A DNA stretch of 64,000 bases. Source: Agromyces badenianii. GTDB lineage: Bacteria > Actinomycetota > Actinomycetes > Actinomycetales > Microbacteriaceae. The stretch is taken from contig NZ_CP028913.1 of NCBI RefSeq assembly GCF_003070885.1, positions 62,001 to 126,000 of the forward strand, given 5' to 3'. The position numbers were made by a program, and so were the translations under genes. Positions 3,590 to 36,593 of this stretch are shown piece after piece (position 1 is the first letter of the stretch; every line of letters starts with the position of its first letter). The notes under the pieces were generated by a model, which searched no databases, was not told where the DNA came from, and saw only the letters and a list, made by a program, of their open reading frames with translations.

Positions 3590-3596
3590 GCCGCGA

Positions 3597-3682: not shown

Positions 3683-3693
3683 GACTAGTCAGT
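3680..3693. promoter_or_regulatory. Perfect 14-bp palindromic operator, TetR type
   Basis: ACTGACTAGTCAGT is a perfect palindrome placed on the -10 and predicted start site of the operon that ends with a TetR-family gene (6660-7214). Position and symmetry suit a TetR dimer site; the pairing with that regulator is inferred from gene order. Confidence 0.7.
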
Positions 3694-3713
3694 ACAAACG
3701 AGAAGGATGCATC

Positions 3714-6619: not shown

Positions 6620-6659
6620 GCCGCGGCCACCGACTCGAACGGAACGACGAGGAGACACC

Positions 6660-7214: not shown

Positions 7215-7324
7215 GCCCGAGCGGGCCCACGGTGGCTCGCTCGACCAGCTCGCGAGGGTGACCGCCCCGCGACATCCGTCGCCGGGGGGATTCGCCGGCC
7301 CGCGGCATCCGACAGGCTGGGCGG

Positions 7325-8077: not shown

Positions 8078-8122
8078 CGAACTGAGATGCGCCGTGTCGG
8101 CGGATCATGGTCGACTCGGGGC

Positions 8123-8923
8123 ATGGGCTTCGATGCGCAGTTCCTCGGTGTTTCAGCGGCGATGCCGCACGTGAGCGAGACGGATGCCGCGGCGACCGTC
8201 GAACTCGACTACCTCCACTTCTCGGTGCTGCTCGACACCGGCAGGCGCCTCGCCCGGGTCACGGGGGTCAACGTCGACGGGCCATCGCTGATCGACCTTC
8301 CGCGCGGCGACGACTGGCGTCTCGACGAGCGCATTCCCGCCGACTGGCAGGCCGGCCCCGAGATCTACGCCCGCAACGACTTCGATCGCGGCCACCTGGT
8401 GCGGCGCCGCGATCCCGTGTGGGGTGCACCCGAGGTGGCCGCCCGCGCCAACGCCGAGACCTTCCGCTACCCGAACGCCGCGCCGCAGGCCTCGGGGTTC
8501 AACCAGTCGAAAGAGCTCTGGCTCGGCCTCGAAGACCACGTGCTCGAGCACGCCGAGGCGCACCGGCTGCGACTCAGCGTGTTCACGGCGCCGGTGCTCG
8601 CCGCGGGCGACCCGCCCTATCGCGGCATCCGCGTGCCCGTGCGGTTCTGGAAGGTCGTCGCGTGGAACTCCGGCGGTGCACTCGCGACGACCGCCTTCGT
8701 GGTCGACCAGGCGCCACTCGTCGACACGAGCGAGGTCGCAGCCCCGCGGCCCGGGCAGGCACCACCGCTCGGTCCGTTCCGCACCTTCCAAGTGGCCGTG
8801 TCGGATGTCTCGGGCATCACCGGCCTCGTCATGCCCGAGCTCGTCTCGGCCGACGTGCTGCCGCGCACGGTCGTGGCCGCCGGGTGGCGCCGGCTCGAGT
8901 CATCCGACGACATCGTGCTCTGA
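8123..8923 (+). CDS. DNA/RNA non-specific endonuclease, no visible secretion signal
   Basis: 266 residues. It carries the NUC (beta-beta-alpha metal) motif DRGH at 88-91, whose His is the general base. The N..PQ..GFNQ..W..LE block (N118, Q122, N127) follows, with N127 the expected metal-binding Asn. The start ATG 8123 is chosen because the catalytic fold begins soon after and TCGACT lies 6 nt upstream; a longer in-frame version from 8087 adds only 12 non-conserved residues. I see no signal peptide, unlike most secreted NUC enzymes, and no immunity or inhibitor gene next door. It could be a cytoplasmic or contact-delivered nuclease, or leave by an unknown route. Confidence 0.85.
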   Translation: MGFDAQFLGVSAAMPHVSETDAAATVELDYLHFSVLLDTGRRLARVTGVNVDGPSLIDLPRGDDWRLDERIPADWQAGPEIYARNDFDRGHLVRRRDPVWGAPEVAARANAETFRYPNAAPQASGFNQSKELWLGLEDHVLEHAEAHRLRLSVFTAPVLAAGDPPYRGIRVPVRFWKVVAWNSGGALATTAFVVDQAPLVDTSEVAAPRPGQAPPLGPFRTFQVAVSDVSGITGLVMPELVSADVLPRTVVAAGWRRLESSDDIVL

Positions 8924-9021
8924 GGTCGGGCGGCGGAGAAGAACCCACCGCCGCGAACAACCCCGCGCTCTTCCCCCGGTTCGGTCTGGCATCACGAGCT
9001 GCGCGGTGCGAGAGTTGAATC

Positions 9022-10596
9022 ATGGGCGAGGGCGCCGAGGCACCGGTCACCGAGGCATCCGTCGGGCGTATCGACGCCGACGTGCTCATCGTCGGTGCGG
9101 GCCCGAGCGGACTCATGCTCGCGGTGTGCCTCGCGAAGCTCGGCGTCGACGCCGTCATCGTCGATGGCAAGAGCGGCCCCACCCGCGAGTCCCGTGCCCT
9201 CGCCGTGCAGGCGCGCTCGATGGAGATCTACGCCCAGCTCGGGCTCGTCGACCGGGTGCTCGCCGCGCGTTCCTCGGCCACGGCCGTCGTGCCGGGGGCG
9301 GGCCGGGGCCGCCGGCCGTTCGGGCGCATCGAACTGCGGGCGATCGGCGAGGGAGTCACGCCGTACCGCGAGATCACGATCTTCGAGCAGAGCCGCAACG
9401 AGCAGCTGCTCGTCGACGCGCTCGGCGAGCTGGGCCACGAGGTGCGGTGGGGGCATCGGCTCGACCACCTCGAGATCGACGGGGCGGATGCCGCGGCATC
9501 CGTCACCGCGACGCTCGCCGCGCCGAGCGGTGCCGTGACCGTGCACGCCCGCTACTGCGTCGGCGCCGACGGAGCGCACTCGCCGGTGCGCGACGCGCTG
9601 GGCATCCCGTTCGAGGGGGTGACGAACGAGCACACCTATTGCATCGTGGATGCCTCGGGCGTCACCGGTCTCGTCGGCGGCGCGATCAACGTGCGCATCA
9701 CGGCCGAGCACTTCCTGCTCGCCTTTCCGATGGGCCCGGGGCGCATGCGACTGCTCGGGGTCGTGCGTGATCGCGATCGCGACGAAACGGGCGAACTGCC
9801 GGAGTCGCTCGTGCGCGGGCTGCTCGACCGGGAGTTCGGCGTGCGGTACGCGGCATCCTCGTGGTTCACCACCTATCGGCTGCACCACCGCCTCGCCGCG
9901 CGTTTCCGTGCGGGGCCGTGCTTTCTCGTCGGCGATGCCGCGCACATCCACTCGCCGGTCGGCGCCCAGGGCATGAACACCGGCCTGCAGGAGGCGCACG
10001 GTCTCGCCTGCGCGCTCGCCGACGTCGTGGTCGGCGGCATGCCCGATGCGCGACTCGACCACTACGAGGCCGAGCGGCGGCCCGTCGGCAGGGTGCTCGT
10101 CGCCACGACCGACCGGGCGTTCGCCGTCGTGACCTCGGCATCGCCGCTCGCGCGTTTCGTGCGCGGGCGCATCGTGCCGGTCATCGGGCCGATCGTCGTT
10201 CGCGTGCTGCCGCGCATCATCGGCGGCCGTCGGGTGTTCGGCTACGTCTCGCAGACGCGCATCCGGTATCCGGTGCCGGATGCCGCGGGCACCCGTCGCG
10301 ACGGTGCCGTCGGCCTGCGGCTGCCGTGGACCGGCGGCAACTTCGACGCACTGCGCTCCGTGCAGTGGCAGGTGCACGGCTACGGCGTGCCCGGCCGTGC
10401 CGTGCGGCGCATCGCCGCGGAACTCGGCGTCGAGGCGCACGTCTTTGCGCGGCACACGAGCGGGCCGCGCAGCCGCCGCCTCCGCCGCGACCGGGTCTAC
10501 CTCGTGCGCCGCGACGGCTTCGTCGTCGCCGAGGTGCTCGCGCCGGGAACCGGCGCTGCCCTCGACGCCGCGTTCGCCCGGCTCGCGGGGGCGTGA
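9022..10596 (+). CDS. FAD-dependent aromatic-type monooxygenase (PHBH fold)
   Basis: 524 residues. Dinucleotide-binding GAGPSG at 25-30 in a beta-alpha-beta context (VLIVGAGPSGLMLAV) and the second FAD motif GDAAH with HSPVGAQGMNTGLQ near 305 identify a class A flavoprotein hydroxylase. The 120-residue C-terminal part is thioredoxin-like in position, as in phenol and polyketide hydroxylases. It would use NAD(P)H and O2 to hydroxylate an aromatic or polyketide substrate. No catabolic or biosynthetic cluster surrounds it, so the substrate stays open. GAGAGT lies 6 nt before the ATG. Confidence 0.85.
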   Translation: MGEGAEAPVTEASVGRIDADVLIVGAGPSGLMLAVCLAKLGVDAVIVDGKSGPTRESRALAVQARSMEIYAQLGLVDRVLAARSSATAVVPGAGRGRRPFGRIELRAIGEGVTPYREITIFEQSRNEQLLVDALGELGHEVRWGHRLDHLEIDGADAAASVTATLAAPSGAVTVHARYCVGADGAHSPVRDALGIPFEGVTNEHTYCIVDASGVTGLVGGAINVRITAEHFLLAFPMGPGRMRLLGVVRDRDRDETGELPESLVRGLLDREFGVRYAASSWFTTYRLHHRLAARFRAGPCFLVGDAAHIHSPVGAQGMNTGLQEAHGLACALADVVVGGMPDARLDHYEAERRPVGRVLVATTDRAFAVVTSASPLARFVRGRIVPVIGPIVVRVLPRIIGGRRVFGYVSQTRIRYPVPDAAGTRRDGAVGLRLPWTGGNFDALRSVQWQVHGYGVPGRAVRRIAAELGVEAHVFARHTSGPRSRRLRRDRVYLVRRDGFVVAEVLAPGTGAALDAAFARLAGA

Positions 10597-20243: not shown

Positions 20244-21623
20244 TCAACTGCAGCAGGCGGTGCCCCCCGCGCCGGCTCGGCCGGGTTCGCCGGCTTCGCC
20301 GGGTTCGCCGGTCGAGCACACGCCGGTGGCGGGCAGCACGAGCTCGACGTTGCGCGCGGCTGCGGCGTCGCCGGCCAGCCAGGCCGAGACCGAGCGCACC
20401 TGCTCGTAGCCCGTCGCGAGCAGGAACGTCGGCGCCCGGCCGTAGCTCTTCATGCCGACGATGAAGAAGTCGCGCTCGGGCTGGGTGAGCTCGGCGAATC
20501 CGTGCGGCTCGACGGTGCCGCACGAGTGCAGGTTCGGGTCGATGAGGGGAGCGAGCCGCCGAGGGGCTTCGACGATCTCGTCGAGCTCGAGCCGGATCTC
20601 GCGCAGCATGTCGAGGTTCGGCCGGAACCCCGTGGCGTTCACGATGCGGTCGGCCGAGATCGTCTCGAGCCCGTCGCCGCGCCGGCCGGTGATGCGAACG
20701 ACGGATGCCCCGTCGTCTCCGCCGCGAGCGAGGCGAACGATCTCGAAGCGGTCGACGAGCTCGATGCGGCCGGCCGCGACGAGTGCGTCGACGCGGGCGC
20801 CGATCGATGCCCGCGCCCGCAGTTCGTCATCGGGCGAGGTCGAGACGCGCGCGGCGGTGGCGTTGCGGATGACCCAGGTGATGCGGGTTCCGGCATCCTG
20901 CTCGGCGAGTTCCGCGAGCTGTAGGAGCGTATTGGCGGCGGAGTGTCCGGCACCGACGACGACCGTGTGGCGGCCGGCGAACGCGGCCCGATCGTGGCCG
21001 AGCGCGTCGGGCAGGGCGTGGCTCACGAGCTCGGCGACCTCGTCGAACCCGAGCGGGTCGAGGCCCGAGGAACCGAGGCTGTTGGGGCTGCGATAGGTGC
21101 CCGAGGCGTCGATGACGGCGCGGGCGGTGAGCTCCTCGACGCCGTCGGCGGTGCGAACGCGCAGGAGGAACGGCGCCTGCGCACGGGCGGCGGTGCGCGT
21201 GCGGTCCATGCCCTCGCGGGAGACGTCGGTGACGTCGACGCCGAGGCGGGTGCGGGCGGCGATCGCCGGAAGCGCGGCGAGCGGCGCGAGGAACCGCGCG
21301 ACGAGTTCGGCGCCGGTGGGGAGCGAGTCGCCGGGCGGTGCCACCCAGTCGGTCTGGTCGAGGAGGAGTCGCTGCGCCGCCGGGTCGATGAGGTGCTTCC
21401 ACGGCGAGAAGAGCCGGGTGTGGCCCCACTGCAGCACGCTCGCGCCGATGCGGTCGCCGGCTTCGAGCAGTACGAAGTCGAGCCCGCGCTCGGCGAGGTT
21501 CGCCGCGGCGGCGAGGCCGATCGGGCCCGCGCCGATGATGGCGACGGGCAGCGCTTGCAGCCGCGGGGCGAGGGTCGTCGGTGGGGTGAGGTCGATGAGG
21601 GTCATCCGAGTGCTCGCATTCAT
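20244..21623 (-). CDS. arsO: ArsO-like flavin monooxygenase / NAD(P)-binding oxidoreductase
   Basis: 459 residues. FAD motif IIGAGPIGLAAAANL (~29-43), NADPH motif VVGAGHSAANTLL (~222) and the FMO-type NATGFRPNLDML segment identify the flavin monooxygenase / ArsO group. Its product acts with ArsR-controlled genes in Streptomyces clusters. The C-terminus ends in a Gly/Pro/Glu repeat followed by a vicinal cysteine pair (GTACCS), with another Cys ~25 residues before; such thiols could bind As(III). It is divergent from arsR across the operator at 21622-21673. It probably oxidises an arsenical or reduced thiol; the exact reaction is unproven. Confidence 0.78.
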   Translation of the reverse strand: MNASTRMTLIDLTPPTTLAPRLQALPVAIIGAGPIGLAAAANLAERGLDFVLLEAGDRIGASVLQWGHTRLFSPWKHLIDPAAQRLLLDQTDWVAPPGDSLPTGAELVARFLAPLAALPAIAARTRLGVDVTDVSREGMDRTRTAARAQAPFLLRVRTADGVEELTARAVIDASGTYRSPNSLGSSGLDPLGFDEVAELVSHALPDALGHDRAAFAGRHTVVVGAGHSAANTLLQLAELAEQDAGTRITWVIRNATAARVSTSPDDELRARASIGARVDALVAAGRIELVDRFEIVRLARGGDDGASVVRITGRRGDGLETISADRIVNATGFRPNLDMLREIRLELDEIVEAPRRLAPLIDPNLHSCGTVEPHGFAELTQPERDFFIVGMKSYGRAPTFLLATGYEQVRSVSAWLAGDAAAARNVELVLPATGVCSTGEPGEAGEPGRAGAGGTACCS

Positions 21624-22165: not shown

Positions 22166-23485
22166 TCAGCCCGCGGGCGTGATGTTGTGGTTCTGCCGGA
22201 ACACGTTGCCCGGGTCGAGCTGTGCCTTGACCCGGCGCAGGCGCTCGAGCGTCGCGGGCGGATACATCGACGCGGTCACCTCGTCGCCGCGCTCTGGCGC
22301 GAAGTTGCCGTAGACCCCGCTCGTGAACGCGATGGCCGCGTCGCTGCCGACCTTCGTCGCTGCCACGAGTTCGGGCGCCGCGTCGAGCGCCAGCACTCCG
22401 TTGACGATCAGCAGTGCTTCGGCGTCGCGGTGGGCGATCGCCGTCGCCTCGGGCGCGACGCGGGAGAACGCGCCGCCGAGGGCCCGCAGCAGCACCATGG
22501 TGGGCACCTCGCGGTCGTAGGCGGTGGCGATCGCGTCGAGCGCCGCATCGGAGAGCTCGGGCACGAAGCCGTTGCCGCCGACGAACAGGAACGGCGGACG
22601 CCCGGGCGGGGCGTCTTCGAGCAGCTCGCCGTAGGCCACCGGGACCAGGGCGACCTCGAGCACCGACGGCAGCTCGAGGAGCGGCGCGAGCAGTTCACGC
22701 AATTGCTCTTCGCTTCCCTGCAGGGCGACGCCGAGTTGCGGGCCGCCGGGCATCTCGGGGCCGAACGGCGGCATCAGCACGAGCGACGAGTTCAGCTCGT
22801 CGGGGCCGGCCCGCATCACGTCGCGCCACGCCCGCAGCACGGCGGGCACATCGGACCGGTCGAACTGCACGTGCCCGCCGACGAGCCCTTCGGCGGGCAT
22901 CGCCTGGAACGTGAAGCGCGTCGCCACGCCGAAGTTGCCGCCGCCGCCGCGGAGCGCCCAGAACGTCTCGGGGTGCAGGGTCTCGTTCACGATCAGCACC
23001 TCGCCGGCTGCAGTCACGAGCTGGATCTCGCGCAGGGCATCGACGGCGAGACCTTGCGCGCGCACCAGCCAGCCGATGCCGCCGCCGAGCGCGATGCCGC
23101 CGACGCCCACGTCACGGGTGTCGCCCGAGCTGATGCAGAGCCCGTGCGGGGCGAGGGCCGCCGCGACATCGCCCCAGCGCGCGCCGCCGCCGACGGTGAC
23201 GAGGCCGTCGGCGCCGACTTCGATGGCGGTGAATTCGGCGAGGTCGACGACGAGTCCGTCGTCGACCGGGAGGAGGCCGTGGCCGCCGCTGCGCACGGCG
23301 ATGGGAATGCCCGCCGCAGCGGCGAGGCCGACGGCGGACGCGACGTCGTCGGCGGTGTGCGGCCGCACGACCGCTTCTGGCTCGCCGATGCCGGCGAAGA
23401 CGGTGCGGCCGGCGTCGTACTCGGTTGCGCCGGGACCATGCACCCGGCCTGGAATTCGCTCGCTCAGATCAGAGAGAAGAGACAT
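22166..23485 (-). CDS. FAD-linked oxidase, berberine-bridge-enzyme-like
   Basis: 439 residues, with CAGACT 6 nt before the ATG. The FAD_binding_4 motif AVRSGGHG places His69 where the covalent 8-alpha-histidyl FAD bond forms. The usual second (cysteinyl) site is replaced in GDTRDVGVGGIALGGGIGWL, so a single covalent link is predicted. A C-terminal BBE segment (YGNFAPERGDEVTASMYPPATLERLRRVKAQLDPGNVFRQN) completes the fold. Members oxidise sugars, alcohols or alkaloid-like compounds with O2. No Tat or Sec signal is seen, so it is cytoplasmic. The substrate is unknown. Confidence 0.88.
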   Translation of the reverse strand: MSLLSDLSERIPGRVHGPGATEYDAGRTVFAGIGEPEAVVRPHTADDVASAVGLAAAAGIPIAVRSGGHGLLPVDDGLVVDLAEFTAIEVGADGLVTVGGGARWGDVAAALAPHGLCISSGDTRDVGVGGIALGGGIGWLVRAQGLAVDALREIQLVTAAGEVLIVNETLHPETFWALRGGGGNFGVATRFTFQAMPAEGLVGGHVQFDRSDVPAVLRAWRDVMRAGPDELNSSLVLMPPFGPEMPGGPQLGVALQGSEEQLRELLAPLLELPSVLEVALVPVAYGELLEDAPPGRPPFLFVGGNGFVPELSDAALDAIATAYDREVPTMVLLRALGGAFSRVAPEATAIAHRDAEALLIVNGVLALDAAPELVAATKVGSDAAIAFTSGVYGNFAPERGDEVTASMYPPATLERLRRVKAQLDPGNVFRQNHNITPAG

Positions 23486-26426: not shown

Positions 26427-26475
26427 CGCCCAACGTGCGAGTTGCGTCGGTGGCGTCATGTGACGGTCAGGGAAT

Positions 26476-26494
26476 GTAGGTGAGGCTACTCTTA
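26476..26494 (+). promoter_or_regulatory. DtxR/IdeR-like iron box before the A-T-acyltransferase gene
   Basis: GTAGGTGAGGCTACTCTTA agrees with the consensus TTAGGTTAGSCTAACCTAA at 14 of 19 positions by my alignment. A wider dyad AGGTGAG...CTTACCT also surrounds the site. It lies 30 nt before the start codon, in promoter position, so iron-bound IdeR would repress. Confidence 0.6.
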
Positions 26495-26524
26495 CCTGAG
26501 CTATCCACGACTTCCAGGAGTGCC

Positions 26525-29215
26525 ATGTCCGCGCGATCTTCCGAGACGACCCGTCTCAGGCTGCTGCGCGGACGTGCGAGCGACGACGCGCTCGTCGTCG
26601 GCGGCGTGCCGCTCACGTACGGCGAGATTCAGGCGCGGGTCGATGCGCGACGCGATGAACTCGGCTCGACGCGCCGACTCGTGATGATCGAGGGTGGCAA
26701 CGCGCTCGAGCCGGTCGTCACCTACCTCGCTGCGCTCGAGGGCGGGCACGTGGTGCTCTTCGTCGACGGCGACCCCGCGCGGTCGGCCGAACACCGGCGG
26801 GGGCTCATCGAGCGGTTCGATCCCGACATCGTCGCGACCGGTCCGAACGGGGCGGGCACCGCGGCATCCGTCGCCCCCTGGCACCTCGACGAGCGCCGCG
26901 AGGGCACGCGTCACGAGCTGCACCCCGAACTCGCGATGCTCGCGAGCACCTCGGGCTCGACCGGTTCGCCCAAACTCGTGCGGCTCTCGCGAGAGAACGT
27001 CGTGAGCAACGCCATCGCGATCGGCGACTCCCTCCAACTCGGACCGAGCGACCGCGCGATCACCACGCTGCCGCTGCATTACTGCTACGGACTCTCGGTC
27101 GTCAACAGCCATCTCGTGTCGGGTGCCGGTGTCGCGCTCACCGAGCGATCGGTCGTCGACGACGGCTTCTGGAACGAGTTCACGGCGTCGGCGGCGACCT
27201 CCTTCGCGGGCGTGCCCTACACGTTCGAGCTGCTCGAGGCGACGGGATTCGCCGGCCGCCACCTTCCGAACCTGCGCTACATCACGCAGGCAGGTGGACG
27301 CCTCGACCCCGAGCGGGTGCGCCGCTTCGCCCGGCTCGGCCGCGAGCGGCACTTCGACTTCATCGTGATGTACGGCCAGACCGAGGCCACCGCGCGCATG
27401 GCGTACCTGCCGCCGCACCTGGCCGAGGCGTCCGCCGGCGCGATCGGCATCCCGATCCCGGGCGGCCGGTTCACGATCGACGCACCCGCCGGCGAAGACG
27501 TGGGCGAGCTCGTCTACGGCGGGCCGAACGTGATGATGGGCTACGCCGAGCAGCCCGCCGACTTCGCCCTCGGCCGAGAGATCGAGGAGCTGCGCACCGG
27601 CGACCTCGCGCGCGTACGCGACGACGGGCTCTACGAGATCGTCGGCCGCAACAACCGTTTCGCGAAGATCTTCGGGCTGCGGCTCGACCTCGATCGCGTC
27701 GAGCGGCTCCTCGCCGACGAGGGCTCGAGTCACGCCGGGGGGCACGAGGTGAGGGCCGCCAGCTGCGACGAGCGTCTGCTGCTGTTCGTGCTCGCCGAGC
27801 GGTTCGCCGGGCCGGTGCGCGATCGCGCGGTGGCGTTGTTCGGGCTGCCGGCGCACGCGATCCGGGTGCACGCGGTCGCCGAGTTCCCGCGCACGTCGAG
27901 CGGCAAGCCCGACACCGGGGCGCTCCTGCGCCACGCGGCGCTGGCCGAGCAGCACGAGCAGCACAGCGCACCGGGTGGCGTCGCCGGGGCCACCGGCACC
28001 GACGCTCGCCGCACGCCCCTCGATGTCATCTTGGCCCTGTACGCCGAGGTGCTCGGGCGCCCGGACGCCACGCCCGAGGACTCGTTCGCCGGGCTCGGCG
28101 GCGACTCGCTGAGCTACGTCGAGGTCTCACTCCGGCTCGAACAGCTCGTCGGCGAACTGCCCCGCGGCTGGCCGAGCCTGTCGGTCGGGAAGCTCGCGGA
28201 CGTTGCGGCCGGTGCAGCTGCGGCCGGTGCGGGTGCGACGGTTGCGCCAGGTGCGACGGGTGCAGGTGCGACGGGTTCGCGCTCACTCGACGCGCCCCGC
28301 CGCCGTCGACGGATGCCGCGGATCGAGACCCCCGCACTGCTTCGTGCCATCGCCATCGTGCTGATCGTCGGCACGCACGCGAACCTCTTCTTCGTGCAGG
28401 GCGGAGCCCACCTGCTGCTCGCGGTCGCCGGCTACAACCTCGCGCGCTTCCAGCTCGCCGACGCGCCCGGCCGACGGCGTGTGGCGGGGCTGCTCAAGAG
28501 CACCGCCCAGGTGGTCGTGCCCGCCGCCCTCTGGATCGGTGCGGTCGGCCTCGTCACGGGCGGCTACCGGCCGACCACGGCGCTGTTCGTGAACAACTTC
28601 CTCGGCGACGAATCGTGGAATCGACAGTGGCAGTTCTGGTTCCTCGAGGCGATCGTGTGGACGATGGTGGCACTCGCCGCGGTGTTCGCCGTGCCGAGGG
28701 TCGATCGGCTGGAGCGGCGGCATCCCTTCGCCTTCGCTCTCGGCGTGCTCGGCGTGGCGCTTGCGGCGCGTCTGCTCCTCACCGGCGGCGTCGAGGCTGA
28801 GGGCATACCGGCGTACATGACGCTCGGCGTCGTGTGGTGCATCGCTCTCGGATGGCTCGTGGCGCGGTCGTCGACCCTCGCCCAGCGGCTCACGGCCTCG
28901 GCGTTGACGCTCGTCACGGTGCCCGGGTTCTTCGGCGAGCCGGGCCGCGAGGCGATCGTCGTCGCCGGCGTGCTCGTGCTGCTGTGGCTGCCCGCCGTGC
29001 CGGTGCCGCGGCTGCTCGTGCCGGTGATCGGCCTGCTCGCCGGCGCTTCGATGTTCATCTACCTGACGCACTGGCAGGTGTACCCGCCGCTCGAGTACCA
29101 CGTGCCCTGGCTCGCGACACTGCTGTCGCTCGTCATCGGGGTGCTCGTGTGGAAGGCGTACTCATTCGTCGTCGCGCGCGGCGCGGCGGTTCTCGCACGG
29201 CGGCGGCGGCGCTGA
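26525..29215 (+). CDS. Adenylation - carrier - membrane acyltransferase fusion, iron-box controlled
   Basis: 896 residues from ATG 26525 with AGGAG upstream; the longer frame starts inside the iron box. Residues ~1-480 are an AMP-forming adenylation domain (ASTSGSTGSPKLVRLS ~139, VMYGQTEATARM, GDLARVRDDGLYEIVGRNNRFAKIFGLRLDLDRVE). Residues ~495-575 are a carrier domain with the phosphopantetheine site GGDSL (Ser528). After an Ala/Gly linker, residues ~597-890 are a ten-segment acyltransferase-3 membrane domain (LLRAIAIVLIVGTH, FIYLTHWQVYPP). There is no condensation domain. The layout suggests activation of an acid, loading on the carrier and transfer at the membrane, as DltA/DltC/DltB do with separate proteins. 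The substrate is unknown; the iron box points to a siderophore or envelope change under iron limitation. Confidence 0.8.
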   Translation: MSARSSETTRLRLLRGRASDDALVVGGVPLTYGEIQARVDARRDELGSTRRLVMIEGGNALEPVVTYLAALEGGHVVLFVDGDPARSAEHRRGLIERFDPDIVATGPNGAGTAASVAPWHLDERREGTRHELHPELAMLASTSGSTGSPKLVRLSRENVVSNAIAIGDSLQLGPSDRAITTLPLHYCYGLSVVNSHLVSGAGVALTERSVVDDGFWNEFTASAATSFAGVPYTFELLEATGFAGRHLPNLRYITQAGGRLDPERVRRFARLGRERHFDFIVMYGQTEATARMAYLPPHLAEASAGAIGIPIPGGRFTIDAPAGEDVGELVYGGPNVMMGYAEQPADFALGREIEELRTGDLARVRDDGLYEIVGRNNRFAKIFGLRLDLDRVERLLADEGSSHAGGHEVRAASCDERLLLFVLAERFAGPVRDRAVALFGLPAHAIRVHAVAEFPRTSSGKPDTGALLRHAALAEQHEQHSAPGGVAGATGTDARRTPLDVILALYAEVLGRPDATPEDSFAGLGGDSLSYVEVSLRLEQLVGELPRGWPSLSVGKLADVAAGAAAAGAGATVAPGATGAGATGSRSLDAPRRRRRMPRIETPALLRAIAIVLIVGTHANLFFVQGGAHLLLAVAGYNLARFQLADAPGRRRVAGLLKSTAQVVVPAALWIGAVGLVTGGYRPTTALFVNNFLGDESWNRQWQFWFLEAIVWTMVALAAVFAVPRVDRLERRHPFAFALGVLGVALAARLLLTGGVEAEGIPAYMTLGVVWCIALGWLVARSSTLAQRLTASALTLVTVPGFFGEPGREAIVVAGVLVLLWLPAVPVPRLLVPVIGLLAGASMFIYLTHWQVYPPLEYHVPWLATLLSLVIGVLVWKAYSFVVARGAAVLARRRRR

Positions 29216-29231
29216 AGGCACCCCGCCCCGC

Positions 29232-29251
29232 GCTGCGCCGCTCTGCGCAGC
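29232..29251. terminator. Candidate terminator hairpin between convergent genes
   Basis: GCTGCGC (29232-29238) pairs with GCGCAGC (29245-29251) around a 6-nt loop. It lies in the 46-bp gap where the acyltransferase gene and the ferric ABC operon end. No T-tract. Confidence 0.4.
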
Positions 29252-29261
29252 TCAGCTCAGC

Positions 29262-30371
29262 TCACGCCCCGACCGGGTGCGGCGCCTCGTCGCCGACGCG
29301 GTCGAGCTCGAGGGGCTCGTCGGCCGGGTAGAAGACGGCTCCGCCGTCGACGCGCACCGCGACGCGCGACCCGGGCCGCAGTCCGTTGAGCTGGTGCAGG
29401 GGCACGCGCACGTCGATGAGCACGGGGTCGGTGTCGCCCGCGAGCAGCGAGACCTCGGCGATCGGTCCCATGGGGCGCACCTCGCGCACGAGGGCGTTCA
29501 GCTCCGCGGCATCCGCGCTGGTGCTCAGGTCGATCTGCGCGGGACGCACCATCGCGAACCCCACGACCGCCCCGTTGCTGCGGTCGTGGCGCAGTGGAAT
29601 GCGGCCGATCGCGCAGTCGACGCATCCGTCGCCCGGGCTCGCGGGCAGCAGCACGGCCGGGCCGAGGAAGGCGGCGATCTCGGCGGTCTCGGGGTCGTCG
29701 AACACGGCGTCGGGGGCGCCGGCCTGGGCGAGGCGGCCGTCGACCATCACGCCGATGGCGTGGCCGAACGAGAGCGCCTCGTCTTGGTCGTGCGTGACGA
29801 GCACCGCGGTGATGCCGCTGCGTTCGAGCGCGTCGATGACGGCACGGCGGGTCTGCTCGCGCAGCCCCGTGTCGAGCGCGCTGAACGGCTCGTCGAGCAG
29901 GATGATGCCGGGCCGCGGCGCGAGGGCGCGGGCGAGGGCGACACGCTGCTGCTGCCCGCCCGAGAGCTGGTGGGGATAGCGGTCGGCAAGGTCGGGGCTG
30001 AGTGCTGAGAGCTCCATGACCTCGCGCACGCGGGCGTCGCGGGTGCGGCCGCGGCCGCGCGGGAGGCCGAACGCGATGTTGCCCGCGACGGTGAGATGGG
30101 GGAACAGTGCACCGTCTTGCGCGACGTACCCGATGTCGCGCCGATGCGCAGGCACTGACGTGCCCGGCGCCGCGAGCGTGCGGTCGCCGAGCCGGATGCT
30201 GCCGGCATCGGGCTGCTCGAAGCCCGCGATGAGCCGCAGCAGCGTGCTCTTGCCACTTCCGGATGCGCCGACGATCGCCGTGCGCGACCCCTGGGGCACG
30301 GCGAGCGAGACGCCCTCGAGCACGGGGGTGCGGCCGAACGACTTCGAGACGCCGGAGACGGTGAGCATCAT
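29262..30371 (-). CDS. Ferric iron ABC importer, ATP-binding subunit (FbpC-like)
   Basis: 369 residues from ATG 30371. Walker A GASGSGKST (35-43), signature LSGGQQQRVALARAL, Walker B IILLDEPFSALD and switch His in VTHDQDEAL are all intact. A C-terminal TOBE-like domain (~250-369) is usual for FbpC/PotA-type importers. It powers uptake through the permease encoded immediately upstream, with which it shares a 4-nt ATGA overlap. It is the last gene of the ABC operon at 29262-32997. Confidence 0.92.
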   Translation of the reverse strand: MMLTVSGVSKSFGRTPVLEGVSLAVPQGSRTAIVGASGSGKSTLLRLIAGFEQPDAGSIRLGDRTLAAPGTSVPAHRRDIGYVAQDGALFPHLTVAGNIAFGLPRGRGRTRDARVREVMELSALSPDLADRYPHQLSGGQQQRVALARALAPRPGIILLDEPFSALDTGLREQTRRAVIDALERSGITAVLVTHDQDEALSFGHAIGVMVDGRLAQAGAPDAVFDDPETAEIAAFLGPAVLLPASPGDGCVDCAIGRIPLRHDRSNGAVVGFAMVRPAQIDLSTSADAAELNALVREVRPMGPIAEVSLLAGDTDPVLIDVRVPLHQLNGLRPGSRVAVRVDGGAVFYPADEPLELDRVGDEAPHPVGA

Positions 30372-31894
30372 CGGGCGCGACCTCCTCGCGTCTGTGCGAA
30401 CATGAGCGCCACGGCGGGCACCGAGAGCAGGATCAGCAGCAGCGCGTACGGCGCGGCCCCCGGGTAGTCGATGGCCGACGCGGCCGACCAGAACTGGGTC
30501 GCGAGCGTGCGGGTGCCCGTTGGAGCGAGCAGCAGCGTGGCGGTCAGTTCGTTCGCCGCGCCGAGCGCGACGAGCGCCCCGCCGGCGGCGACGGCCGGGA
30601 GCAGCAGCGGGGCGGTGACGCGCAGCCGGGCCACGATCGGCGCCGATCCGAGCGAGCGCGCCGCCTCTTCGAGCGACTCGGGCACCTGGGCGATGCCGGC
30701 CCGCAGCGAGACGAGCGCGCGCGGCAGGAAGATCACGACGTACGCGGCCATCACTGTGGCAGCGGTCTGGTAGAGCGCAGGCACGAAGCGCAGCGTCACC
30801 GTGACGAGCGCGAGCGCGACGATGATCGCCGGCAGGCTGCTCGCCACGTAGTACGGCGCCTCGAGGCTGCGACTGAGCCGCCCCGGGAACCGCGCCGACA
30901 ACCACCCGACCGGCAGCGCCACGAGCAGCGCACCGACGGCCCCACCGGTCGCGAGCAGCACGGTCTGCACGATGGCGGCGGGCATCGCTTCGAAGGCCGA
31001 GGGGTCGGATGCCGCGAGCCACCGCACCACGTTCACGAGCGGCACGACCGTGGCCGCCGCGCCCAGCACGACGAGCGCGGCGATCGCGAGCGGTGTCGCT
31101 CGGCCGAGCCGCGCGGGCACGGCAGGGTGCGGACTCCCGGTGCCGACCCGCGCATACCGCGCGCGCCCGCGCGCGCCGGCCTCGATCACGAGGAGCACGA
31201 GGCAGAGGGTGGCGAGCACCACGCCGAGCGCCGCGGCGGATGACCCGGCGAACGTCGACTGGTAGGCGACCACGATCGCCGTGGTGAACGTGTCGAACCG
31301 GATGAATGCGAACGCGCCGTACTCGGCGAGCAGATGCAGGGCGACGACCAGTCCGCCGCCGAGGATGGCGAGGCGCAGCTGCGGCAGGATGACGCGGCCG
31401 AACACCGCCCACGAACTCTGTCCGAGCGACCGGGCCGACTCCTCGAGCGCCGGGTCGAGACCGCGCAGCGTGGCCAGCGCGGGGAGGTAGACGAGGGGGG
31501 AGTAGGCGAGGGTCGCGACGAGCAGCCCGCCGGCGAGCCCGTTGATCGACGGGATCGCGCTCGCCCAGCCGTAGCTGCTCACGAACGCCGGAATGGCGAG
31601 CGGCGCGACGAGCAGCACCGCGAAGAACCGACGACCGGGCAGGTCGGTGCGCTCGACGAGCCAGGCGCCGCCGACACCGAGCACGATCGTCGCCGGCACG
31701 CCCAGCACGAGCAGCAGCACGGTGTTCACGAGCAGCTCGCCGACTCGCGGACGGAAGATCAGCGGCGCGAGCTCCGCCCAGCCGATCTCGACCGCCGTGG
31801 CGACGACGTAGCCGACCGGCACGAGCATGGCGACGGCGAGCACGGCGACGAGCGCGAGGAGCGTCGCCGACGGCGTGCGACCGTCGCCGGTCAC
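30368..31894 (-). CDS. Ferric iron ABC importer, double permease (FbpB-like)
   Basis: 508 residues from GTG 31894. This is the first start codon after the lipoprotein gene that precedes the first membrane segment; none closer is available. There are about twelve membrane segments in two homologous halves, each with the inner-membrane EAA loop (LEESARSLGQSSWAVFGRVILPQL and LEEAARSLGSAPIVARLRVTAPLL) that contacts the ATPase. The FbpB/SfuB fusion of two permease units is typical for Fe(III) systems. The translation start is the least certain part. Confidence 0.88.
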   Translation of the reverse strand: MTGDGRTPSATLLALVAVLAVAMLVPVGYVVATAVEIGWAELAPLIFRPRVGELLVNTVLLLVLGVPATIVLGVGGAWLVERTDLPGRRFFAVLLVAPLAIPAFVSSYGWASAIPSINGLAGGLLVATLAYSPLVYLPALATLRGLDPALEESARSLGQSSWAVFGRVILPQLRLAILGGGLVVALHLLAEYGAFAFIRFDTFTTAIVVAYQSTFAGSSAAALGVVLATLCLVLLVIEAGARGRARYARVGTGSPHPAVPARLGRATPLAIAALVVLGAAATVVPLVNVVRWLAASDPSAFEAMPAAIVQTVLLATGGAVGALLVALPVGWLSARFPGRLSRSLEAPYYVASSLPAIIVALALVTVTLRFVPALYQTAATVMAAYVVIFLPRALVSLRAGIAQVPESLEEAARSLGSAPIVARLRVTAPLLLPAVAAGGALVALGAANELTATLLLAPTGTRTLATQFWSAASAIDYPGAAPYALLLILLSVPAVALMFAQTRGGRAR

Positions 31895-31953
31895 CGCCCG
31901 GCCCGCGTCGCGGGTCGGCGCCGTTCGGCTCTCAGCCGGTGTCGCCGTGAAGG

Positions 31954-32997
31954 TCAGAGCAGCCCCGCCTCCGTCATGAGGTCGATGACCTCGGGGCCGT
32001 TGAGCGTCGACGGGTCGACGGCCGGGGCGTCGAGGGTGTCGAGGGCGGGCAGCGGCGGCTTCGCCGGGACATCGCCGATGACCGGGTACTCGAAGCTGTA
32101 GCCCTCGCCGAGGATCGTCTGGCCCTGCACGCCGGCGAGGAAGGCGAGGAACTGCTGCGCCTCTTCCTTGTGGGCGCTCGATTTCAGCACGCCGCCGCCG
32201 GAGACGCTCACGAAGGCGCCCGGGTCCTGGTTGCCGAAGTAGTGCAGCTCGGTGTTCGCGCTGTTCTCCTCGGTGCCGTCCTGGTCGCGGTACCAGTAGT
32301 AGTGGTAGATCACGCCTCCCGGAACCTCGCCGGCGTTCACGGCCTTCATGGTCGCGATGTTGTTCTGGTAGATCGTGGCGTTGCTCTTCATGCCCGCCAG
32401 CCAGTCGGCAGCGGCATCGGCGCCCGTGAGTTCGACGATCGCCGAGACGATGGCCTGGAAGTCCGCGCCGCCGGGCGCCCCACCCCAGCGGCCCTTCCAC
32501 GAGGCGTCCGCGAGGTCGAGGATCGAGGCCGGAAGCTCCGACTCGTCGAGCAGCTCGGGGTTGTAGACGAACACCGTCGAGCGCGCGGCGATGCCGGTCC
32601 ACAGGCCGCTCGACGGGCGGTACTCCTCGGGCACGAGGTCGAGCGTCGCCTGGTCGACGGGCGCGAGCAGGCCGGCGTTCTCGACGAGCGAGATCGCGGG
32701 CGAGTTCTCGGTGAGGAACACGTCGGCTCGAGAGGCCTCACCCTCTTCGACGAGCTGGTTGCCGAGTTCGCTGTCGTTGCCGTGGCGCACGACCACCTCG
32801 ATGCCGGTCTCCTCGGTGAAGGCCGCGACCCATTCCTCGGTGAGCTGCTCGTGCTGGGCGTTGTAGACGACGAGCGCGTCGTCGGAGGCCTCGGCCTCGG
32901 AGCCGCCGTCGACGGCGCCGCCCGCCGCGCAGCCGCTGAGCACCATCGCCGCGAGTGCGACGGGCGCGAGGGTCAGGAGGAATCGACGAGGGGTCAT
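31954..32997 (-). CDS. Ferric iron ABC importer, substrate-binding lipoprotein (FbpA-like)
   Basis: 347 residues. A lipoprotein signal ends in LSGC (Cys23), followed by a Gly/Glu linker. The mature part has the FbpA-class fold, with DALVVYNAQHEQLTEEWVAAF at the front and VIYHYYWYRDQDG around residue 220, where FbpA proteins use adjacent tyrosines to hold Fe(III). It captures iron at the outer face of the membrane. It is the first gene of its operon, divergent from efeU, with an iron box in between. Confidence 0.92.
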   Translation of the reverse strand: MTPRRFLLTLAPVALAAMVLSGCAAGGAVDGGSEAEASDDALVVYNAQHEQLTEEWVAAFTEETGIEVVVRHGNDSELGNQLVEEGEASRADVFLTENSPAISLVENAGLLAPVDQATLDLVPEEYRPSSGLWTGIAARSTVFVYNPELLDESELPASILDLADASWKGRWGGAPGGADFQAIVSAIVELTGADAAADWLAGMKSNATIYQNNIATMKAVNAGEVPGGVIYHYYWYRDQDGTEENSANTELHYFGNQDPGAFVSVSGGGVLKSSAHKEEAQQFLAFLAGVQGQTILGEGYSFEYPVIGDVPAKPPLPALDTLDAPAVDPSTLNGPEVIDLMTEAGLL

Positions 32998-33023
32998 GAG
33001 GCTCTCTCGGAATCGCTAGCAGG

Positions 33024-33042
33024 AAAGGCTAGCCTAACCCGG
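33024..33042 (-). promoter_or_regulatory. DtxR/IdeR-like iron box for the ferric ABC operon
   Basis: Read on the minus strand the site is CCGGGTTAGGCTAGCCTTT, matching the consensus at 13 of 19 positions with an intact GGTTAGGCTA core. It lies 27 nt upstream of the lipoprotein start codon. Confidence 0.6.
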
Positions 33043-33094
33043 CGCAGCCGGGATGACGTTCTGCGTCGGCCGACCGCAGTGCGACGCTCCGAAA

Positions 33095-33113
33095 TTAGGT
33101 TAGCCTTAGCTCA
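33095..33113 (+). promoter_or_regulatory. DtxR/IdeR-like iron box for efeUOB
   Basis: TTAGGTTAGCCTTAGCTCA matches TTAGGTTAGSCTAACCTAA at 16 of 19 positions, with the left half perfect. It lies 30 nt upstream of the efeU start and is the best iron box in the window. Confidence 0.75.
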
Positions 33114-33143: not shown

Positions 33144-34052
33144 GTGCTCGCCAACTACCTGATCGGCCTCCGCGAAGGCCTCGAAGCAGGCCTCATCGTC
33201 GGCATCCTCATCGCGTACCTCGGCAAGATCGGGCGCCGCGACCTCTTCGGCCGGCTCTGGATCGGCATCGGCATCGCGATCGCCGTCTCGCTCGGTGTCG
33301 GCGCCCTGCTCACCTGGGGTCCGTACGCGATGACCTTCCAGGCCCAAGAGGTGCTCGGCGGCGTGCTCTCGCTCGTCGCGGTCGCGCTCGTCACCTGGAT
33401 GATCTTCTGGATGGGCACCCACGGTGCCGGCCTCTCGAAAGAGCTGCGCGGCCAGGTGGATGCCGCGATCGACCGCTCCTGGTTCGCGATCGTGCTGCTC
33501 GGGGCCCTCTCGGTCGGCCGCGAGGGCATCGAGACCGCCCTCTTCGTCTGGGCGAACGTCTCGGGCGGCAGCGACCCCGTGCTCGGCACGGCCGGGGCCC
33601 TGCTCGGCATCCTCACCGCCGTCGTCATCTCGTGGGGCATCTCCCGCGGGCTCGTGCGCATCAACCTCTCGGTGTTCTTCACCTGGACGGGGCTCTTCCT
33701 GATCCTCGTCGCCGCCGGGGTGCTCGTGTACGGCATCGGCGACCTGCAGGAGGCCTCCGTCATCCCCGGCTGGGGCACCCACGCGTTCAGCCTCGTCGAG
33801 CTCGTGCCACCGGGCAGCTGGTACGGCACCCTGCTCGGCGGCATCTTCAACTTCACGCCCGAGCCGACCTGGGCCCAGGTCATCGGCTGGATCGTGTACG
33901 TCGCCATCACGAGCTCGCTCTACCTCGGCATGCTGCACCGGCGGCGACGCCGGGCCCCCGCCGGCCGAGAGGCGAGCACCCCCGAGCGTCTCGAGACTCC
34001 CGCACCGGGTCTCGGCACGGCGCTGCGCGCCCGCTCCGCCGGCGCATCCTGA
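33144..34052 (+). CDS. efeU: EfeU, FTR1-type iron permease
   Basis: 302 residues from GTG with AGGAG 6 nt upstream. Seven membrane segments. Two REXXE iron-binding motifs are present: REGLE at 10-14 and REGIE near 126. These glutamates form the ferric iron path in FTR1/EfeU. The C-terminal 30 residues are a polar cytoplasmic tail. It is first gene of efeUOB behind an iron box, so it is expected to be on when iron is scarce. Confidence 0.95.
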   Translation: MLANYLIGLREGLEAGLIVGILIAYLGKIGRRDLFGRLWIGIGIAIAVSLGVGALLTWGPYAMTFQAQEVLGGVLSLVAVALVTWMIFWMGTHGAGLSKELRGQVDAAIDRSWFAIVLLGALSVGREGIETALFVWANVSGGSDPVLGTAGALLGILTAVVISWGISRGLVRINLSVFFTWTGLFLILVAAGVLVYGIGDLQEASVIPGWGTHAFSLVELVPPGSWYGTLLGGIFNFTPEPTWAQVIGWIVYVAITSSLYLGMLHRRRRRAPAGREASTPERLETPAPGLGTALRARSAGAS

Positions 34053-34092
34053 CCCGCAGTTCCACCGCAACACCGACAACCCAGGAGTCCCC

Positions 34093-35301
34093 ATGACCCG
34101 ACGTGCCCTCGCGGCATCCGCTGCCGTGACCGCACTGGCGCTGGCCCTGACGGGCTGCGTCGCGAAAGCCGACCTCGCCTCGGCGATCGCCGTCGACATC
34201 ACCGATGACGGATGCGCCGTGGCCGCCGCGACCGCGCCGGCCGGCGCCGTGACGTTCGCGCTCGCCAACAACGGCTCCGACGTGAACGAGTTCGAGATCC
34301 TCGCCGACGACCAGCTGCGCATCGTGGGGGAGAAGGAGAACGTGACGCCCGGGCAGGAGGTCGAGTTCACCGCGCAGCTCGGCCCCGGCACCTACTACAC
34401 GGCGTGCAAGTTCCAGCAGGTCGGCGCCCCGATCGGGCTCGCCGAGTTCACCGTGACCGGTGAGGCCTCCGCCGTCTCGGCCGACGAGCAGGAGCTCGCC
34501 GACCAGGCCGTCACCGAGTACCTCTCTTATGTGCGGTCGCAGTCGGCCGAACTGCTGCCGCTCGTCGAGGCGTTCACCGCCGCCTACGCCGCCGGCGACG
34601 ACGACGAGACCGCACGGTCGCTGTTCGCCGCGACCCGCGTGCCGTACGAGCGCATCGAGCCGACCGCCGAGGCGTTCGGCGACCTCGACCCGAAGATCGA
34701 CTTCCGCGAGGTCGACGCCGTCGCCGACGGCCTCGAGTGGACCGGGTTCCACCGCATCGAGAAGGACCTCTGGCCGCCGGCCGCCGGTGACCTCAACTCC
34801 GACGGGCAGGACGCCCTGAAGGACTGGGCGCCGTCGACGCCCGACGAGCGCCAGGTGTACGCCGACGGTCTCGTCGCGGATGTCGCCGAGCTGCACGAGC
34901 TCGTGACCGCAGACGACTTCACGGTGTCGCTCGCCGACATCTCCAACGGCGCGATCGCCCTGCTCGACGAGGTCGCCGCGGGCAAGATCACCGGTGAAGA
35001 GGACTGGTGGTCGGGCACCGACCTCTCGGACTTCGCCGCGAACGTGCAGGGCGCGGGCGTCGCATTCGGCGCGGTGCGCGCGCTCGCCGAGTCGAAGGGC
35101 GACGAGGGCACGGCGCTCGCGACCGAGATCGACGAGCAGTTCACGGCGCTCGAGGACGCGCTCAGCGAGTACGGCTCGCTGGAGTCGGGCTTCGTCGACT
35201 ACGCGACCCTGACCGACGCCGACAAGAAGGCGCTCAGCGACCAGGTCAACGCGCTCGCCGAGCCGCTCTCGAAGCTCACCGCGACGGTGCTCGGGGTCTG
35301 A
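34093..35301 (+). CDS. efeO: EfeO, iron-binding cupredoxin plus M75 domain lipoprotein
   Basis: 402 residues. A lipoprotein signal ends in LTGC. Residues ~30-130 are a cupredoxin-like domain with a Cys in the metal-loop position (YYTACKF). Residues ~140-400 are the EfeO M75 (peptidase-like) domain with the HXXE motif in FHRIEKDLW, proposed to bind iron. This is the full-length two-domain form. It passes iron to EfeU at the cell surface. The TGA stop overlaps the efeB ATG. Confidence 0.95.
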   Translation: MTRRALAASAAVTALALALTGCVAKADLASAIAVDITDDGCAVAAATAPAGAVTFALANNGSDVNEFEILADDQLRIVGEKENVTPGQEVEFTAQLGPGTYYTACKFQQVGAPIGLAEFTVTGEASAVSADEQELADQAVTEYLSYVRSQSAELLPLVEAFTAAYAAGDDDETARSLFAATRVPYERIEPTAEAFGDLDPKIDFREVDAVADGLEWTGFHRIEKDLWPPAAGDLNSDGQDALKDWAPSTPDERQVYADGLVADVAELHELVTADDFTVSLADISNGAIALLDEVAAGKITGEEDWWSGTDLSDFAANVQGAGVAFGAVRALAESKGDEGTALATEIDEQFTALEDALSEYGSLESGFVDYATLTDADKKALSDQVNALAEPLSKLTATVLGV

Positions 35302-36593
35302 TGAGCGCCGATCGTTCCAGCGGCGGCGGCGTGAGCCGTCGGCAGCTGTTCGGTGTCCTCGGCGCGGGCGCGGCCGGGGCGGTCGTCGGTGCCGCCGGCG
35401 GGGCAGGGGTCGCGCTCGCCGCGACCGGCGGTGGCACGACGGACGCCTCGGGCGCCGCGGCATCCGTCTACCCGTACTTCGGGGCGCACCAGGCCGGCAT
35501 CGTGACCCCCGCTCAAGACCGCCTGCACTTCGCCGCCTTCGACGTCGCCGACGCGCTCGACCGCGAAGGCCTCATCGGGCTGCTCACCGAGTGGACGGAT
35601 GCCGCGGCGCGCCTCAGCCAGGGCCTCGAGGTCGCCGAGGGCGGGGCGGTCGGCGGCTCCGACTACTCGCCGCCGACCGACACGGGCGAGGCGCTCGGCC
35701 TGCCCGCGAGCGGGTTGACGATCACCTTCGGGTTCGGGCCGGGCCTCTTCACCGATGAGTCGGGCGCCGATCGCTTCGGCCTCTCGGCACGCAGGCCCGC
35801 GATGCTCGAACCGCTGCCGCGGTTCCAGGGCGACGCGCTCGTGCCCGAGATGTCGGGCGGCGACCTCTGCATCCAGGCGTGCGCCGACGATCCGCAGGTC
35901 GCGGTGCACGCGATCCGCAACCTCAGCCGCATCGCGTTCGGCCGGGCGAGCCTGCGCTGGTCGCAGCTCGGATTCGGCCGCACCTCGTCGACGTCGACGA
36001 CGCAGGCGACACCGCGCAACCTCTTCGGCTTCAAAGACGGCACCGCGAACGTCAAGGCCGAGGAGACGGCGATCGTCGACGATCACGTGTGGGTGCACGC
36101 GTCCGACGAGCCGGCGTGGCTCGCGGGCGGCTCCTACCTCGTGGCCCGCCGCATCCGCATGATCATCGAGAACTGGGATCGCGTGCAGCTCGGCGAGCAG
36201 GAGATGCTCGTCGGCCGCTCGAAGGGCGAGGGGGCACCGCTCTCGGGCGGCACCGAGTTCACCGAACCCGACTTCGACAAGACCGGGGCGACCGACGCGC
36301 CGCTCATCGACGCCGACGCGCACGTGCGACTCGCGCATCCCACGAGCAACGGCGGTGCACGGATGCTGCGGAGGGGATACAACTTCGTCGACGGCAACGA
36401 CTCGCTCGGCCGGCTCGACGCCGGGCTCTTCTTCCTCTCGTTCCAGCGCTCGCCGCAGCAGTTCATCGACGTGCAGACGAGCCTCGCGCGAGACGGCCTG
36501 AACGAGTACCTGAAGCACGTCGGCTCCGCGATCTTCGCGGTGCCGGGCGGGGTGGCCGAGGGCGAATTCGTGGGGCAGGCGCTCTTCGCCTGA
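35301..36593 (+). CDS. efeB: EfeB, Tat-exported Dyp-type heme peroxidase
   Basis: 430 residues from ATG 35301, which overlaps the efeO stop by one base. A twin-arginine signal (VSRRQLFGVLGAGAAGAVVG) leads to export in folded form. The Dyp motif FGFKDGTAN carries the catalytic Asp, and the proximal heme His lies in the LAHPTSNGG region (~340). EfeB is reported to oxidise Fe(II) or to free iron from heme; both fit an iron-uptake operon. Confidence 0.95.
   Translation: MSADRSSGGGVSRRQLFGVLGAGAAGAVVGAAGGAGVALAATGGGTTDASGAAASVYPYFGAHQAGIVTPAQDRLHFAAFDVADALDREGLIGLLTEWTDAAARLSQGLEVAEGGAVGGSDYSPPTDTGEALGLPASGLTITFGFGPGLFTDESGADRFGLSARRPAMLEPLPRFQGDALVPEMSGGDLCIQACADDPQVAVHAIRNLSRIAFGRASLRWSQLGFGRTSSTSTTQATPRNLFGFKDGTANVKAEETAIVDDHVWVHASDEPAWLAGGSYLVARRIRMIIENWDRVQLGEQEMLVGRSKGEGAPLSGGTEFTEPDFDKTGATDAPLIDADAHVRLAHPTSNGGARMLRRGYNFVDGNDSLGRLDAGLFFLSFQRSPQQFIDVQTSLARDGLNEYLKHVGSAIFAVPGGVAEGEFVGQALFA

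What the first reader, a model, noticed from the sequence alone, without database searches (positions are those of the whole stretch)
26476..29215. Single-chain adenylation-carrier-membrane acyltransferase enzyme under an iron box
Seen: an intact AMP-forming adenylation domain, a carrier with GGDSL and a ten-segment acyltransferase-3 domain in one 896-residue chain, with no condensation or thioesterase domain, 30 nt behind a DtxR/IdeR-like site. Known: DltA, DltC and DltB do activation, carriage and membrane transfer as separate proteins, and poly-lysine synthetases combine A, T and membrane parts but add extra soluble domains. Inferred: this protein activates an acid and hands it to a glycan, lipid or siderophore at the membrane when iron is low. 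No siderophore biosynthesis genes lie next to it, so it may be a self-contained envelope-modifying device.
Basis: partly seen in the sequence, partly recalled or inferred. Interest (0 to 1): 0.78.

Follow-up and report, generated by a model that had tools for sequence, protein, structure and literature searches.

The report
Iron-controlled one-protein acyl-transfer enzyme
In this soil actinobacterium, and in many of its relatives, a single protein built to activate an acid, carry it and pass it through the cell membrane lies behind an iron switch and goes together with a ferric-iron importer, which suggests an unstudied way of gathering iron.

Summary
ORF 26525-29215 (896 aa) has AMP-binding, carrier (GGDSL) and acyltransferase-3 (AT3) domains, 30 nt behind a DtxR/IdeR-like box. 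The AT3 half has ten long helices, an invariant R-X10-H motif and the fold of HGSNAT.

Enzyme plus FbpABC form one 6.66-kb block that three relatives lack at this site. FbpABC accompanies the enzyme in 23 of 35 named actinobacterial loci, in 12 of them upstream on the same strand. In 60 related genomes all 19 with the enzyme have an FbpA, against 8 of 41 without; in 13 of the 19 the two were not found side by side. An iron box of at least 13/19 precedes the enzyme or its operon in 51 of 54 actinobacterial loci, against 5 of 3,142 control windows.

The adenylation pocket seems to lack the amino-acid Asp (Cys or Ser instead) and has an invariant Arg; free-standing relatives have nearly the same pocket. 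I infer that a common acid without an alpha-amino group is moved to an acceptor outside the membrane, and that the product helps Fe(III) reach FbpA. Acid, acceptor and iron binding are unknown. Nine full-text searches found no account of this system.

The parts
26431..33090 (.). Block that holds the enzyme and FbpCBA; absent at this site in three relatives
   Evidence: blastn of the window against G034, G030 and G018 (L139-L141): flanks 85-90% identical, ending at 26430/26431 and resuming at 33091/33095, with 85-89 bases between them in the relatives
26476..26494 (+). DtxR/IdeR-like iron box of the enzyme, 14/19
   Evidence: consensus recalled
26516..26520 (+). Shine-Dalgarno-like AGGAG
   Evidence: read from the sequence
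26525..29215 (+). Enzyme gene, adenylation-carrier-AT3, 896 aa
26582..27925 (+). Adenylation domain, about residues 20-467; pocket residues C187 and R291
28016..28234 (+). Carrier domain, about residues 498-570; GGDSL with S528
28322..29212 (+). AT3 domain, about residues 600-896, ten long helices, R607-X10-H618
29262..30371 (-). fbpC, ABC ATPase
   Evidence: start taken from gene overlap
30368..31951 (-). fbpB, double permease
   Evidence: start approximate
31954..32997 (-). fbpA, ferric-iron-binding lipoprotein (lipobox LSGC, YHYYW)
   Evidence: phmmer to YfuA E 6e-123, SfuA, HitA, FbpA; sequence
33019..33037 (-). Iron box upstream of fbpA, 14/19
33095..33113 (+). Strongest iron box, 16/19, between fbpA and efeU; at the edge of the flank shared with relatives
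33144..36593 (+). efeU (FTR1), efeO (cupredoxin + M75), efeB (DyP peroxidase): neighbours, outside the block

Best explanation
An iron-repressed, single-chain acyl relay that serves the FbpABC ferric-iron importer. When iron is low, DtxR/IdeR leaves the boxes and both are made. The adenylation domain activates a common carboxylic acid without an alpha-amino group and loads it on the phosphopantetheine of Ser528. The AT3 domain takes the acyl group from the carrier and passes it through the membrane to an acceptor on the outside, an envelope glycan or lipid or an exported small molecule. The acylated product holds or mobilises Fe(III) near the membrane, from where the lipoprotein FbpA takes it and FbpBC imports it. 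Shown by sequence here: domains, motifs, folds, iron boxes, and the genetic bond with FbpABC. Inferred: kind of acid, direction of transfer, acceptor, and that the product has to do with binding iron. My odds: a role in iron acquisition 0.85; acyl transfer to an extracytoplasmic acceptor 0.7; product supplies Fe(III) to FbpA 0.45.
For: FbpA, with the permease in all 23 and the ATPase in 21, within 10 kb of the enzyme in 23 of 35 named actinobacterial loci, 12 of them FbpA-B-C-enzyme on one strand. Co-occurrence with FbpA 19/19 against 8/41 in 60 genomes, 13/13 against 4/24 in the genus, 12/12 against 75/234 in a phylum draw, with two types of FbpA (72-75% or about 36% identical to the window's within the genus). 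No such positive association for EfeU (7/19 against 28/41) or NIS synthetase (1/19 against 8/41). Iron box in 51 of 54 loci against 5 of 3,142 control windows. AT3 fold and R-X10-H. Pocket conserved in 55 fused and 22 stand-alone domains. Block edges coincide with the four genes.
Against: No product, acid or acceptor is known and nothing shows that the product binds iron. The three phylum loci L134, L135 and L137, and L038, L048 and L117, lack a convincing box; none of 18 Pseudomonadota fused loci has one or an FbpA nearby. Eight of 41 enzyme-free genomes have FbpA, so FbpA does not need the enzyme. If the two doubtful phylum matches (G245, G260) counted as the enzyme, the phylum figure would be 12 of 14. 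Counts are of genomes and loci, many related.
Confidence: 0.45

Rival explanations
1. One-enzyme diffusible metallophore: the AT3 domain acylates a small soluble acceptor and the product, a weak ferric chelator, leaves the cell; FbpA strips the iron outside.
For: Same genetic evidence as above; the enzyme genomes rarely have an NIS siderophore synthetase (1 of 19).
Against: No exporter or ferric-siderophore binding protein is a constant neighbour among the clusters; FbpA-type proteins bind bare Fe(III) (recalled).
Confidence: 0.2
2. One reading: envelope acylation that follows iron but serves another end, for example surface charge or defence.
For: AT3 proteins commonly acylate surface glycans (PMC9558356, passages read); two alphaproteobacterial fused enzymes stand next to a second AT3, one of them also next to a GtrA-type glycosyltransferase; some actinobacterial enzymes stand alone with their box among unrelated genes.
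Against: Does not explain why every enzyme genome in two draws has FbpA.
Confidence: 0.18
3. The enzyme modifies the FbpABC system itself, for example acylates FbpA or its lipid anchor.
For: FbpA is a lipoprotein and is the constant companion.
Against: AT3 acceptors known to the review read are sugars; 8 of 41 enzyme-free genomes keep FbpA; two unlike FbpA types go with the enzyme.
Confidence: 0.08
4. No functional bond: two iron-regulated units that are often transferred or inherited together.
For: The window's copy is a discrete inserted block and the distribution in the genus is patchy; no phylogenetic correction was made.
Against: The association stays complete in 13 of 19 genomes where the two were not found side by side (for G014 and G046 the contig is short), with two FbpA types and several gene orders.
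Confidence: 0.09

Closest known systems
Dlt teichoic-acid D-alanylation (DltA, DltC, DltB)
   Same: Order of steps: adenylation, carrier, membrane acyl transfer
   Different: Here one chain; AT3 instead of MBOAT (recalled for DltB); pocket not for an amino acid; iron box and FbpABC. Dlt details recalled, listings only
Acyltransferase-3 proteins / TmAT superfamily (OafB, OatA, HGSNAT)
   Same: PF01757, R-X10-H, fold match to HGSNAT
   Different: Own adenylation and carrier domains at the N-terminus; the reviews read in passages (PMC9558356, PMC9833829, PMC12423673) name SGNH and racemase fusions, and the words AMP-binding and adenylation occur 0 times where searched
A-PCP-acyltransferase 'type A/B' NRPS genes of Microbacterium (PMC7438953, section 16 read)
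   Same: Small NRPS-like genes with a terminal acyltransferase-like domain, suggested to make siderophore-like compounds
   Different: Type A lies next to aminopeptidase N; amino acids predicted as substrates; no FbpABC or iron box mentioned in that section. Whether some type B genes are this family I cannot tell (supplements not open)
Stand-alone adenylation relatives in clusters with ACP-size protein, LuxE, SDR, DegT and PglD genes (L083-L110)
   Same: 34-47% identity and nearly the same ten pocket residues
   Different: No AT3 in the same chain; no FbpA nearby; function unknown to me
epsilon-poly-lysine synthetase (recalled)
   Same: A and T domains with a membrane part in one chain
   Different: Ends after the AT3 domain, without extra soluble domains

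Membership tests
Acyltransferase-3 / TmAT | PF01757 above cut-off | tested here: met
   40.9 against 31 bits; 35 of 36 family AT3 parts match at E up to 0.01
Acyltransferase-3 / TmAT | R-X10-H in the first helix | tested here: met
   R607 and H618 invariant in 55 sequences; motif from PMC9833829
Acyltransferase-3 / TmAT | Ten-helix TmAT fold | tested here: met
Acyltransferase-3 / TmAT | RXXR pair at the start of the third helix (acyl-CoA site) | tested here: inconclusive
   No such pair among invariant or nearly invariant columns; not mapped on a structure
Acyl-adenylating enzymes | PF00501 and fold | tested here: met
Dlt system | MBOAT membrane partner | tested here: not met
   Membrane part is PF01757; no MBOAT match
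Dlt system / amino-acid A domains | Asp at GrsA 235 that binds the alpha-amino group | tested here: inconclusive
   C187 in one gap-free LgrA alignment, another gapped one puts G189 there; Cys 40, Ser 15 of 55
Canonical NRPS | Condensation and release domains | tested here: not met
   None found
FbpABC ferric importer (neighbour) | FbpA-class binding protein with adjacent Tyr ligands, permease and ATPase | tested here: met
   (YfuA 6e-123, HitA, FbpA), YHYYW, BPD_transp_1 and ABC_tran; NCBIfam's best labels (2-aminoethylphosphonate) are far below cut-off
DtxR/IdeR regulon | Conserved operator upstream | tested here: met
   51 of 54 loci
DtxR/IdeR regulon | Expression that responds to iron | not testable with these tools
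   needs transcript or reporter data
Siderophore biosynthesis | Product that binds Fe(III) | not testable with these tools
   product unknown

The most novel reading that the evidence does not exclude
A new class of iron acquisition: one membrane protein builds, in one pass and from a housekeeping acid, a non-diffusing ferric ligand on the actinobacterial surface, and FbpABC is its dedicated importer; the four genes can travel as a module that stands in for a siderophore system.
Probability: 0.25. Interest if true: 0.9.

Novelty: new variant of a known kind. Interest (0 to 1): 0.7.

Why it matters
What presents Fe(III) to FbpABC in free-living actinobacteria is, as far as I know, not settled. 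A single enzyme that in two genome draws never occurs without an FbpA, and that shares its gene order and iron boxes from Agromyces to Nocardioides, Streptomyces, Lentzea and environmental mycobacteria, gives a concrete, testable answer. It would also be, as far as I know, the first AT3 protein with its own acid-activating and carrier domains, so one that need not draw its acyl group from acyl-CoA.

Tried and rejected
Tried without result. Full-text searches for this architecture or its regulation (nine searches) listed no description of an A-T-AT3 enzyme with an iron box or FbpABC; most hits were seen as listings only, six papers in passages or sections. A profile of the AT3 part matched no solved chain, and plain Foldseek gave no significant match for the AT3 model. 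Fur- and Irr-like strings in Pseudomonadota loci reached at most 12 of 19 and 12 of 17; no control was run. Ten neighbours each of Pseudomonadota and of actinobacterial loci without FbpABC were mostly unrelated genes. Repeats in the block: only GC-rich short matches, none seen to pair its two edges (capped list).

Rejected: cluster 1 as a count of FbpC, because it also holds ABC-F ATPases (L063), so counts rest on FbpA; cluster 6 as a gene, because in the window its ORF (31334-32098, plus) lies antisense to the permease and FbpA.

Rows left out or special. Of these 80, 35 actinobacterial fused loci were counted for boxes and FbpABC (L055 among them is cut by its contig end), 18 Pseudomonadota fused loci were counted apart, and 27 were left out: L076, L081, L090 (cut or broken), L088, L103 and 22 stand-alone adenylation loci. 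The 54 loci are these 35, 18 from the genome search handles and the window; they include near relatives with identical boxes (for example L037/L073/L082, L114/L115, L119/L128), so they are not 54 independent events; 40 pass at the enzyme itself and 11 at fbpA as first gene of a same-strand operon, so two windows were looked at per locus where FbpA is near. Among the 19 enzyme genomes, G014's copy ends at a contig edge and G006's is split over two frames. In one search, G260 (580 aa) and G245 (adenylation part only, one stop) were not counted as fused; neither has an FbpA at E up to 1e-20. G274 starts at a contig edge and had no upstream to test. Four of the 12 phylum genomes (G000, G037, G041, G053) were also in the 60; the other eight give 8 of 8.

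Full report
What is there. The ORF starts at ATG 26525 behind AGGAG (26516-26520) and ends at 29215, 896 residues. Pfam finds AMP-binding, PP-binding and Acyl_transf_3, each above its cut-off, and no other family at E up to 0.01.

The adenylation half. Its fold is closest to acid-CoA ligases such as FACL13, feruloyl-CoA synthetase, MenE, benzoate and oxalyl ligases and MatB. In one gap-free LgrA alignment the Asp of amino-acid activating domains falls on C187; a second, gapped alignment puts G189 there, so this is likely but not certain. The ten pocket positions (GrsA numbering recalled) read C/S-Y-S-G-T-A-M-A-R-K with few exceptions in 55 fused proteins, and nearly the same, with Ser, Thr or another residue first, in 22 stand-alone domains from Clostridia, Bacteroidales, Treponema and others. 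R291 is invariant in both sets. I read this as one common acid without an alpha-amino group, perhaps with a second acidic group; that is inference.

The neighbour that was missed. Directly downstream, on the other strand, lie an ABC ATPase, a double permease and a lipoprotein whose best solved matches are YfuA (E 6e-123), a ferric-iron-binding protein 8k7n, SfuA, HitA and FbpA, with lipobox LSGC and YHYYW: a ferric-iron FbpABC importer. EfeUOB follows.

A module with visible edges. In G034, G030 and G018 the DNA left of 26430 and right of 33091-33095 is 85-90% identical and 85-89 bases apart. By the coordinates same-genus genomes have both the S9 peptidase and efeU: in 23 they lie 109-1,077 bases apart on one contig, in G025 6.4 kb and in the window's genome 6.7 kb. 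So the 6.66 kb that hold the enzyme, FbpCBA, the enzyme's box and one fbpA box form a unit; the strongest box (33095) lies at the shared efeU flank.

Bond with FbpABC. Of 35 named actinobacterial loci with the fused enzyme (from, a capped list), 23 have FbpA within the fetched 10 kb: 12 with FbpA-B-C-enzyme on one strand (L032, L034, L042, L044, L045, L047, L049, L050, L052, L055, L071, L079), 2 with the enzyme first on the same strand (L048, L056), 7 divergent (among them four Streptomyces) and 2 convergent. None of the 18 Pseudomonadota fused loci and none of the stand-alone loci has FbpA. Of 18 loci from unnamed relatives 5 have it nearby, and 4 of 7 fused loci of the phylum draw. In the 60-genome set all 19 enzyme genomes have FbpA at E up to 1e-20, against 8 of 41 others (p 1e-9); in the genus 13 of 13 against 4 of 24 (p 7e-7); in the phylum draw 12 of 12 against 75 of 234 (p 2e-6), or 12 of 14 if two doubtful matches were counted. 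In 13 of the 19 the two were not found side by side. EfeU (7/19 against 28/41, fewer if anything, p 0.03) and NIS synthetase (1/19 against 8/41) show no positive association. These are counts of genomes, not of independent events.

Iron box. Over 54 actinobacterial loci 51 reach at least 13/19 in the 320 bases around the start of the enzyme or, in 11 operons, of fbpA; misses are L038 (12), L048 (12) and L117 (11). Of 3,142 control windows 5 reach 13 and none 14. In seven further fused loci four pass (L131, L132, L133, L136) and three do not (L134 12, L135 11, L137 11); all 18 Pseudomonadota loci fail. A strict pattern finds two sites in the whole genome, both in the fbpA-efeU gap. A quick tree puts 31 box-bearing actinobacterial enzymes on one side and 12 Pseudomonadota enzymes on the other (99% SH-aLRT, midpoint root), so iron control probably came with the actinobacterial branch.

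How it may work. Low iron opens the promoters. An acid is adenylated, loaded on Ser528 and handed by the AT3 domain to an acceptor outside. What is gained should concern Fe(III), since FbpA is the constant companion. Whether the product is an envelope group or a soluble compound cannot be told here; I lean to the envelope because of AT3 precedent (PMC9558356, passages seen) and because FbpA-type proteins take bare Fe(III) (recalled). The window's genome has no NIS synthetase, and its other three matches to the enzyme are in frames of 593-636 residues, single-domain size.

What is known. Proteins with these three Pfam domains abound in databases under names such as 'AMP-binding protein'. The nearest text is PMC7438953 (section 16 read), which lists A-PCP-acyltransferase genes of Microbacterium as possible siderophore genes, with other neighbours. 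Nine searches of the paper library showed no account of this system; the library lacks most subscription journals.

Noticed in passing
L142 (G025:C76), about 3200-9560: In G025, which lacks the enzyme, the same S9-efeU gap holds a different stretch of about 6.4 kb with one clear coding ORF (6709-8172, 487 aa); the site may take up iron-related or other inserts repeatedly.
   Followed up: no
L016 / L123 (G006): The enzyme of G006 is split over two overlapping frames while its FbpABC is beside it: a sequencing error, a decaying copy or a two-protein form.
   Followed up: no
L058 12541-13617 and L074 12611-13717: Two alphaproteobacterial fused enzymes are followed by a second, stand-alone AT3 gene; in L058 also by a glycosyltransferase with a GtrA part.
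   Followed up: partly
L083-L110: Stand-alone relatives of the adenylation domain in many phyla recur with a 79-residue ACP-size protein, LuxE-like acyl-protein synthetase, SDR, DegT and PglD genes: an apparently unstudied acyl pathway of sugar clusters with the same pocket.
   Followed up: partly
window 20244-21623 and 22166-23485: A flavin oxidoreductase with a weak lysine/ornithine N-oxygenase match and an unannotated minus-strand coding ORF lie 3-5 kb upstream of the S9 peptidase.
   Followed up: no
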